A stretch of 64,000 bases of DNA from Vulcanisaeta thermophila (GTDB lineage: Archaea; Thermoproteota; Thermoprotei; Thermoproteales; Thermocladiaceae): contig NZ_BCLI01000001.1 of the NCBI RefSeq assembly GCF_001748385.1, positions 186,001-250,000 on the forward strand. Reading direction: 5' to 3'. The notes beneath the pieces are model-generated. The model was given only the letters and a program-made list of their open reading frames with translations. It did not search any database and had not been told where the DNA came from. Made by a program: the position numbers and the translations under genes. Positions 31,864-42,157 of this stretch are shown piece by piece; the first letter of the stretch is position 1, and the number at the start of each line of letters is the position of its first letter.

Positions 31864-31928
31864 CATTATTCAGGATGGGCGCAAGTTCCTCATTGAATCA
31901 GTCACGCTCGTGCATCATCACCAATAAT
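31864..31928 (-). ncRNA. Candidate C/D box guide RNA
   Basis: On the minus strand the order is C box GTGATGA (31915-31921), a 13-nt guide (31902-31914), D' CTGA (31898-31901), a 4-nt spacer, C' ATGAGGA (31887-31893, one mismatch to RTGATGA), a 13-nt guide (31874-31886) and D CTGA (31870-31873). ATTAT/ATAAT flanks can form a terminal stem. The TATA-like TTTTTAAA (31946-31953) predicts transcription start near 31923. It probably guides 2'-O-methylation by fibrillarin; targets not determined. Confidence 0.72.
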
Positions 31929-40695: not shown

Positions 40696-41274
40696 GTGGA
40701 TAAGGTACTCCACATCTCACTGGAGTATCCGCCCCACAGGGTAATTGGGCCCCTGGCGTACACCATCAGGGATTTGGTGACTCAATTGTCGAGGTATTAC
40801 GAAATTTACCTGATACACCCAGCCGATTTCGATGGTGATTACATGGATGGTGACGTGAGGGTTCACGCAGTGAGTGATAGGTGGTTCAGCGATGTGCTAG
40901 TGTATGCGCATTACCTGGTTAGTGAGGTTTCATCTAAGGCCCCCTACATAGTGCCCAGGGACGTGGTCCTCATACACGCCCATGATTGGATACCCGCAAT
41001 GGTGGGTAGGGTAATTGCTAAGAGGCTTCGTAAGCCGCTCATTGTTAGTGTTTACACTACGGAGCCCATGAGGTCAGGGGGTTCACTAAGCCTATTGAGC
41101 CTCTCCATCACCGATTGGGAGAGGTACGTCCTGTCAGAGGCCGATCACGTGATAGCCCACAGCAGATTCGCCCTTGAATCCCTGAGCAGGGACTATGGCA
41201 TAAAGGCCTCCCTCTTCAATGACTTAAGCACCATACTGAGCATTTACAGGGACGTCATTAAACCAAGGGCATAG
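40696..41274 (+). CDS. Glycosyltransferase N-terminal domain only (GT4/GT5-like)
   Basis: A 192-residue protein that matches only the N-terminal Rossmann half of a glycogen/starch-synthase type enzyme: LHISLEYPPHRVIGPLAYTI (acceptor loop), LIHAHDWIPAMVGRVIAKR near 95, and SEADHVIAHSRFALESL near 152. The C-terminal donor-binding domain is absent and the protein ends cleanly, so it is either a truncated paralogue or one subunit of a split enzyme. It lies next to GH57, supporting an alpha-glucan link. Its stop touches a candidate C/D RNA on the other strand. Confidence 0.72.
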   Translation: MDKVLHISLEYPPHRVIGPLAYTIRDLVTQLSRYYEIYLIHPADFDGDYMDGDVRVHAVSDRWFSDVLVYAHYLVSEVSSKAPYIVPRDVVLIHAHDWIPAMVGRVIAKRLRKPLIVSVYTTEPMRSGGSLSLLSLSITDWERYVLSEADHVIAHSRFALESLSRDYGIKASLFNDLSTILSIYRDVIKPRA

Positions 41275-41329
41275 TCAGCCACCAACACGGTCATCAATGG
41301 TGGTCAGTCCGTCGTCAGATCATCACACG
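41270..41329 (-). ncRNA. Candidate C/D box guide RNA with full box set
   Basis: Minus strand: C box GTGATGA (41320-41326), a 12-nt guide (41308-41319), D' CTGA (41304-41307), a 6-nt spacer, C' TTGATGA (41291-41297), a 12-nt guide (41279-41290), D CTGA (41275-41278). All spacings are those of archaeal sRNAs. Transcription would start near 41329 from the same TATA (41351-41360) that serves the sirtuin. Predicted methylation is at the fifth nucleotide: C in 5'-CCACCAACACGG and U in 5'-UCCGUCGUCAGA. Real targets were not searched. Confidence 0.82.
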
Positions 41330-41350: not shown

Positions 41351-41360
41351 CTTAAAAACA
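41351..41360. promoter_or_regulatory. TATA box shared by sirtuin gene and C/D RNA candidate
   Basis: CTTAAAAACA, centred near 41355, is 26 bases from the ATG of the sirtuin gene at 41381 and 26 bases, in the other direction, from 41329, just before the C box of the minus-strand RNA. Confidence 0.5.
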
Positions 41361-41380: not shown

Positions 41381-42157
41381 ATGCAGTCACAACCCTGTGA
41401 TTTAAATGAGGTGAGGAGGGCGGCCGAGATACTGGTTAACGCGAAACACGCCATAGCCTTCACGGGCGCCGGCATCTCCACAGAATCAGGGATACCGGAC
41501 TTCCGTGGGCCCCAGGGTCTGTGGAGGCAGTACAGCCCAGAAATAGCTACCACGGAGTACTTCCACTCACACCCCAAGGAATTTTGGGCCTTTTACAGGG
41601 TTAGACTCTCATCAATATTCATCGCAAAGCCCAACAGGGCCCACCTGGCACTGGCGGAGCTCGAGGGCATGGGCATTATTAAGGCAGTGATCACGCAGAA
41701 TGTTGATGGGCTACACCAGGCCGCTGGCTCCAAGAATGTGATTGAGCTCCACGGGACCATGAAGAGGGCTAGGTGCATTGTGTGTGGTCGTGAATACCCA
41801 ATGGACATCGTAATTAGGAAGATAGACTCGGGACAATTACCACCGCTCTGCGATGACTGTGGTGGCATACTAAAGCCTGACGTTGTGCTGTTCGGGGAGC
41901 CCGTGAAGGACTTCGACAAGGCCCAGGAACTGGCCATGAGGAGTGACGCCGTGTTAGTCATAGGCTCCTCACTAACGGTCTACCCAGCCGCCTACATACC
42001 AATCTTTGTTAAGGAGATGGGTGGTAAGGTGATTATCATAAACATGGAGCCCACGGAACTTGACTACCTAGCCGATGTGGTGATTAGGTGCAGGGCCGGC
42101 GATGCCATGACCGCACTACTAAGCATGGTTAAGGAGTTACTAAACCGCGGTGGTTGA
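41381..42157 (+). CDS. cobB: Sir2-family NAD-dependent protein deacetylase
   Basis: A 258-residue sirtuin. AFTGAGISTESGIPDFRGP near residue 27 binds NAD, QNVDGLH near 107 and HGTM near 122 carry the catalytic His, and two CxxC pairs (CIVC, CDDC) bind zinc. Archaeal sirtuins remove acyl groups from Alba and other proteins, using NAD. The gene is monocistronic. Confidence 0.95.
   Translation: MQSQPCDLNEVRRAAEILVNAKHAIAFTGAGISTESGIPDFRGPQGLWRQYSPEIATTEYFHSHPKEFWAFYRVRLSSIFIAKPNRAHLALAELEGMGIIKAVITQNVDGLHQAAGSKNVIELHGTMKRARCIVCGREYPMDIVIRKIDSGQLPPLCDDCGGILKPDVVLFGEPVKDFDKAQELAMRSDAVLVIGSSLTVYPAAYIPIFVKEMGGKVIIINMEPTELDYLADVVIRCRAGDAMTALLSMVKELLNRGG

What the first reader, a model, noticed from the sequence alone, without database searches (positions are those of the whole stretch)
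41270..41329. Canonical C/D box guide RNA opposite the end of a glycosyltransferase-like gene
All four boxes are present with 12-nt guides (GTGATGA, CTGA, TTGATGA, CTGA), and the expected start at 41329 is set by the same TATA that serves the sirtuin gene. This exactly fits the archaeal C/D sRNA plan and lies outside any coding frame, apart from four or five bases overlapping the end of the upstream gene. Predicted modified sites are the fifth nucleotides of 5'-CCACCAACACGG and 5'-UCCGUCGUCAGA.
Basis: partly seen in the sequence, partly recalled or inferred. Interest (0 to 1): 0.85.

Follow-up and report, generated by a model that had tools for sequence, protein, structure and literature searches.

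The report
Archaeal C/D box rRNA methylation guide
A short gene in a Vulcanisaeta archaeon encodes an ordinary type of small guide RNA that very probably directs methylation of two sites in the 16S ribosomal RNA; it is real and conserved across the genus, but of a well-known kind.

Summary
On the minus strand, 41326..41275 reads C box GTGATGA, 12-nt guide, D' CTGA, 6-nt spacer, C' TTGATGA, 12-nt guide, D CTGA. This strict layout occurs once in the window and never in 200 shuffles. The element is conserved in 10 of 11 other genomes of the genus (Vulcanisaeta), between the same two genes. Identity is 81-87% inside the RNA and 44-57% in the flanks; an AT-rich, TATA-like stretch lies about 26-34 nt upstream of the C box.

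Both guides match the genome's own 16S rRNA. The D' guide forms 10 Watson-Crick pairs and predicts Um at U1022 (E. coli U1062, helix 34). The D guide forms 9 Watson-Crick and 2 G:U pairs and predicts Cm at C1329 (about E. coli 1362, helix 43). Relatives' guides strengthen both assignments, up to 12 of 12 pairs. Fibrillarin, Nop5 and L7Ae-family genes are present. It is a new member of a known kind, of low surprise. A second conserved C/D sRNA lies at 31921..31870 (-).

The parts
41275..41326 (-). C/D box sRNA, C box to D box (mature RNA probably extends a few nt on either side)
41320..41326 (-). C box GTGATGA
   Evidence: sequence
41308..41319 (-). D' guide TCTGACGACGGA; 10 WC pairs with 16S 1019-1028; predicted 2'-O-methyl at U1022 (E. 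coli U1062)
41304..41307 (-). D' box CTGA
41298..41303 (-). D'-C' spacer CCACCA (2-6 nt across the genus)
41291..41297 (-). C' box TTGATGA
41279..41290 (-). D guide CCGTGTTGGTGG; 11 pairs (2 G:U) with 16S 1325-1335; predicted 2'-O-methyl at C1329 (about E. coli 1362)
41275..41278 (-). D box CTGA
41351..41358 (.). AT-rich TATA-like element (TTTTTAAG on the minus strand), about 26-32 nt upstream of the C box; could also serve the sirtuin gene on the + strand
   Evidence: A+T 0.82-1.00 at -33..-26 across 11 copies
40696..41274 (+). Neighbour: glycosyltransferase family-4-like protein, convergent with the sRNA
   Evidence: Pfam PF13439 E=5.7e-14
41381..42157 (+). Neighbour: Sir2-family protein (sirtuin), divergent from the sRNA
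   Evidence: Pfam PF02146 E=1.9e-51

Best explanation
A dual-guide C/D box sRNA transcribed from its own TATA-type promoter on the minus strand. It would fold into a C/D k-turn and a C'/D' k-loop, bind L7Ae, Nop5 and fibrillarin, and pair with 16S rRNA. Through the D' guide it would direct 2'-O-methylation of U1022 (E. coli U1062, helix 34). Through the D guide it would direct 2'-O-methylation of C1329 (about E. coli 1362, helix 43 loop). Shown here: sequence anatomy, conservation, synteny, complementarity to the genome's own rRNA, and presence of the protein genes. Inferred: transcription, RNP assembly and methylation.
For: All four boxes and 12-nt guides are present; the strict pattern gives 0 hits in 200 shuffled windows. 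Homologous copies exist in 10 of 11 other genus genomes (the one miss is 54% complete), and only the sRNA stretch is matched. Identity is 81-87% in the sRNA against 44-57% in the 60-nt flanks. All nine contexts examined lie between the glycosyltransferase-like and sirtuin genes. The D' guide core CTGACGACGG is invariant and pairs 10/10 with 16S 1019-1028; end bases in G004, G008, G009 and G010 each add a pair to the same 16S site. D guides of nine of the ten relatives form 11 or 12 pairs with 16S 1325-1336, 12/12 WC in G002 and G003; the targets are unchanged in the six 16S genes checked. AT-rich TATA-like stretch at -34 to -26. Fibrillarin, Nop and L7Ae-family genes are present. The U1062-equivalent site is also matched by D guides of differently built sRNA-like elements in other genera of the order.
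Against: No transcript or methylation data were available. In this species alone the D-guide match is not significant: 27% of shuffles of that guide score as well; support comes from relatives. No Rfam family passes its gathering score; the best is sR5 with 17.2 bits against 40. Thermodynamic folding of the isolated RNA is no better than shuffles (z = -0.57), which is expected for an RNA whose k-turns form with protein.
Confidence: 0.96

Rival explanations
1. A C/D box sRNA in which only the D' guide directs methylation; the D guide pairs with helix 43 mainly as an RNA chaperone or is inefficient in this species.
For: In the window the D guide has an internal G:U and a terminal G:U. In G004 a one-base deletion shifts the register to A1330 with 9 WC pairs. 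Chaperone roles have been proposed for dual guides (Dennis et al. 2015, PMC4644070).
Against: The other nine relatives keep 11-12 pairs to the same site with the register preserved.
Confidence: 0.15
2. The D' guide mainly targets 23S position 2231 instead of the 16S site.
For: 23S 2227-2238 gives 11 pairs including 3 G:U.
Against: Base changes at the guide ends in four relatives add pairs to the 16S site; G004's terminal C and the first-position G of three relatives would not pair with the 23S site.
Confidence: 0.04
3. A cis-antisense regulator of the glycosyltransferase-like gene, or a chance run of boxes in the 3' region of that gene.
For: It lies convergent to the gene end, and in some relatives overlaps it further.
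Against: Conservation is confined to boxes and guides, not the gene end, and both guides match 16S. Overlap with a 3' gene end is common for archaeal C/D sRNAs (Breuer et al. 2021, PMC7994747).
Confidence: 0.02

Closest known systems
Archaeal dual-guide C/D box sRNAs of Thermoproteales (e.g. Pyrobaculum calidifontis, Thermoproteus tenax; Dennis et al. 2015, PMC4644070)
   Same: Same box order and consensus, guide length of 10-12 nt, rRNA targets, frequent overlap with neighbouring gene ends.
   Different: This pairing of guides (16S helix 34 plus helix 43) was not found in the parts of that paper's main text that were read; its supplementary target tables could not be read.
Rfam sR5 (RF01304), archaeal C/D sRNA
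   Same: Aligns end to end through the boxes (17.2 bits, E=0.051).
   Different: Far below the gathering score of 40; guides differ.
sRNA-like elements in genus g5 of the same order with guide xCTGACGACGGx next to the D box (loci L034-L043)
   Same: Same predicted 16S target, U1022-equivalent.
   Different: The shared guide is at D, not D'; the other guide (ATAACTAGAC..) and the flanking sequence differ, so these are probably not orthologous genes.

Membership tests
Archaeal C/D box sRNA | C/C' boxes RUGAUGA and D/D' boxes CUGA in order C-D'-C'-D | tested here: met
   GTGATGA, CTGA, TTGATGA, CTGA; 0 of 200 shuffles. The C' box has U instead of R at position 1, a position that varies in relatives.
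Archaeal C/D box sRNA | Guides of about 10-12 nt directly upstream of D' and D | tested here: met
   Both 12 nt
Archaeal C/D box sRNA | Guide complementarity to rRNA or tRNA of the organism, with a pair at the fifth nt upstream of D/D' | tested here: met
   16S 1018-1029 and 1325-1336; the fifth position is WC paired at both
Archaeal C/D box sRNA | Evolutionary conservation of boxes and guides | tested here: met
   11 genomes
Archaeal C/D box sRNA | Genome encodes L7Ae, Nop5 and fibrillarin | tested here: met
   PF01269, PF01798 and PF01248 over cut-off; which of the three PF01248 proteins is L7Ae itself was not resolved
Archaeal C/D box sRNA | Expressed as a ~50-70 nt RNA bound by the C/D RNP | not testable with these tools
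   No RNA data held
Archaeal C/D box sRNA | Directs 2'-O-methylation of the predicted nucleotides | not testable with these tools
   Needs RiboMeth-seq or mass spectrometry
Rfam sR5 (RF01304) | Score at or above the gathering threshold of 40 bits | tested here: not met
   17.2 bits

The most novel reading that the evidence does not exclude
A genus-specific dual guide whose two 16S targets (helix 34 at E. coli U1062 and helix 43 loop near 1362), about 300 nt apart in sequence and both in the 30S head, are bound together by one sRNP, so that it chaperones folding of the 3' major domain as well as methylating it.
Probability: 0.12. Interest if true: 0.4.

Novelty: new member of a known kind. Interest (0 to 1): 0.2.

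Why it matters
It adds a well supported guide RNA, not covered by Rfam, to Vulcanisaeta. It names two testable 16S methylation sites, one next to the helix 34 spectinomycin-binding nucleotides. It gives a clean case in which one target site appears to be kept across an order while the guide sits in differently built sRNAs, and in which one relative (G004) has a one-base deletion that should move the methylated nucleotide by one.

Tried and rejected
Rfam at gathering threshold: no hit in the window. Phage records: no match. A DNA search pattern with more than two variable gaps was not accepted, so a script was used instead. A 23S target for the D' guide was considered and ranked below 16S. Cis-antisense regulation was considered and rejected, because conservation follows the boxes and guides rather than the gene end. 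The Paractinoplanes hit lies outside archaea and was set aside as a likely chance match without further study. No paper on Vulcanisaeta C/D sRNAs was found. The Pyrobaculum family paper cited in reviews (Lui et al. 2018) did not appear in the library.

Full report
What is there. On the minus strand from 41326 to 41275 the window reads GTGATGA-TCTGACGACGGA-CTGA-CCACCA-TTGATGA-CCGTGTTGGTGG-CTGA. This is the complete C-D'-C'-D plan of an archaeal C/D box sRNA with two 12-nt guides. A strict regular expression for that plan hits the window once and none of 200 dinucleotide-preserving shuffles. The gene upstream on the + strand ends at 41274, one base before the D box.

Conservation. A search of 41 genomes with 161 bases around the element matched 10 of the 11 other genomes of the genus. 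In each case only the stretch from just before the C box to about the D box was matched. The one genome without a match is 54% complete. Named records place the genus as Vulcanisaeta. Boxes and guide cores are invariant or nearly so. Identity to the window copy is 81-87% within the sRNA, against 44-57% for each 60-nt flank. In all nine contexts examined the sRNA lies between homologues of the same glycosyltransferase-family-4-like gene (PF13439) and the same Sir2-family gene (PF02146). In some relatives it overlaps the 3' end of the former, an arrangement reported as common for archaeal C/D sRNAs (PMC7994747).

Promoter. Across the 11 copies A+T is 0.82-1.00 at positions -33 to -26 before the C box, and seven of the copies hold a TTTAWAT-like octamer matching at 7 or 8 of 8 positions that starts at -30 to -34. 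This fits an own TATA-type promoter. In seven of the eight relatives measured the distance is 92-102 nt, and in one 65 nt as called from its first start codon, so sharing is not a general feature.

Targets. The genome's own 16S and 23S genes were retrieved. The D' guide forms 10 uninterrupted Watson-Crick pairs with 16S 1019-1028 (GCCGUCGUCAGC, 1018-1029). By the fifth-nucleotide rule (PMC7994747) the modified base is U1022, which aligns with E. coli U1062. The D guide forms 11 pairs, two of them G:U, with 16S 1325-1335 (UCACCAACGCGC, 1325-1336), predicting C1329, aligned with about E. coli 1362. That these lie in helix 34 and in the helix 43 loop, and that C1063/G1064 belong to the spectinomycin site, is from general knowledge.

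Significance of the targets. Taken alone, the D' match is moderately significant (2% of shuffled guides do as well) and the D match is not (27%). The relatives decide the matter. D guides of nine of the ten relatives form 11 or 12 pairs with the same 16S stretch, all Watson-Crick over 12 positions in G002 and G003. End-base changes of the D' guide in G004, G008, G009 and G010 each add a pair to the same 16S site. The 16S targets are unchanged in all six genomes checked. In G004 one base is missing before the D box, which should move the methylated base to the neighbouring A1330.

Machinery. The genome encodes fibrillarin, a Nop-domain protein next to it, and three proteins over the L7Ae-family cut-off.

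Wider picture. A guide with the same xCTGACGACGGx core is found in other genera of the order, placed next to the D box with an unrelated partner guide. The helix 34 site thus seems to be a shared methylation target reached by different sRNAs, in line with the guide diversification described in PMC4644070 and the review PMC7994747.

Verdict. The finding is real and rightly interpreted. It is one ordinary member of a large, well-known class: 52 to 128 such genes were counted in the crenarchaea surveyed in PMC4644070. Interest is therefore low.

Second sRNA. The same scan with looser boxes found a further C/D sRNA in the window at 31921..31870, minus strand, intergenic. It is conserved in 9 genus relatives, with C, C' and D boxes and guide cores kept and a degenerate D' box in relatives. 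The best matches of its guides lie about 30 nt apart in 23S, at 2532-2544 and 2501-2513.

Noticed in passing
31870..31921 (-): A second C/D box sRNA, GTGATGA-TGCACGAGCGTGA-CTGA-TTCA-ATGAGGA-ACTTGCGCCCATC-CTGA, intergenic and conserved in 9 genus relatives; best rRNA matches at 23S 2532-2544 (10 WC) and 2501-2513 (D' box degenerate in relatives).
   Followed up: partly
L009 (G004), sRNA at 1501-1556: A one-base loss before the D box should shift the D-guide methylation site from 16S C1329 to A1330 in this relative.
   Followed up: partly
L034-L043 and L016, L019: C/D-like elements in other genera of the order carry the same 16S helix 34 guide at the D box with a different partner guide; the partner guides tested had no good match to this genome's rRNA.
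   Followed up: partly
L015, L017, L018 and others: C/D-like elements with guide CCTCACGACGAT beside a second guide GGGTATCAAAC; resembles a guide to the 23S A-loop region (E. coli U2552), not tested.
   Followed up: no
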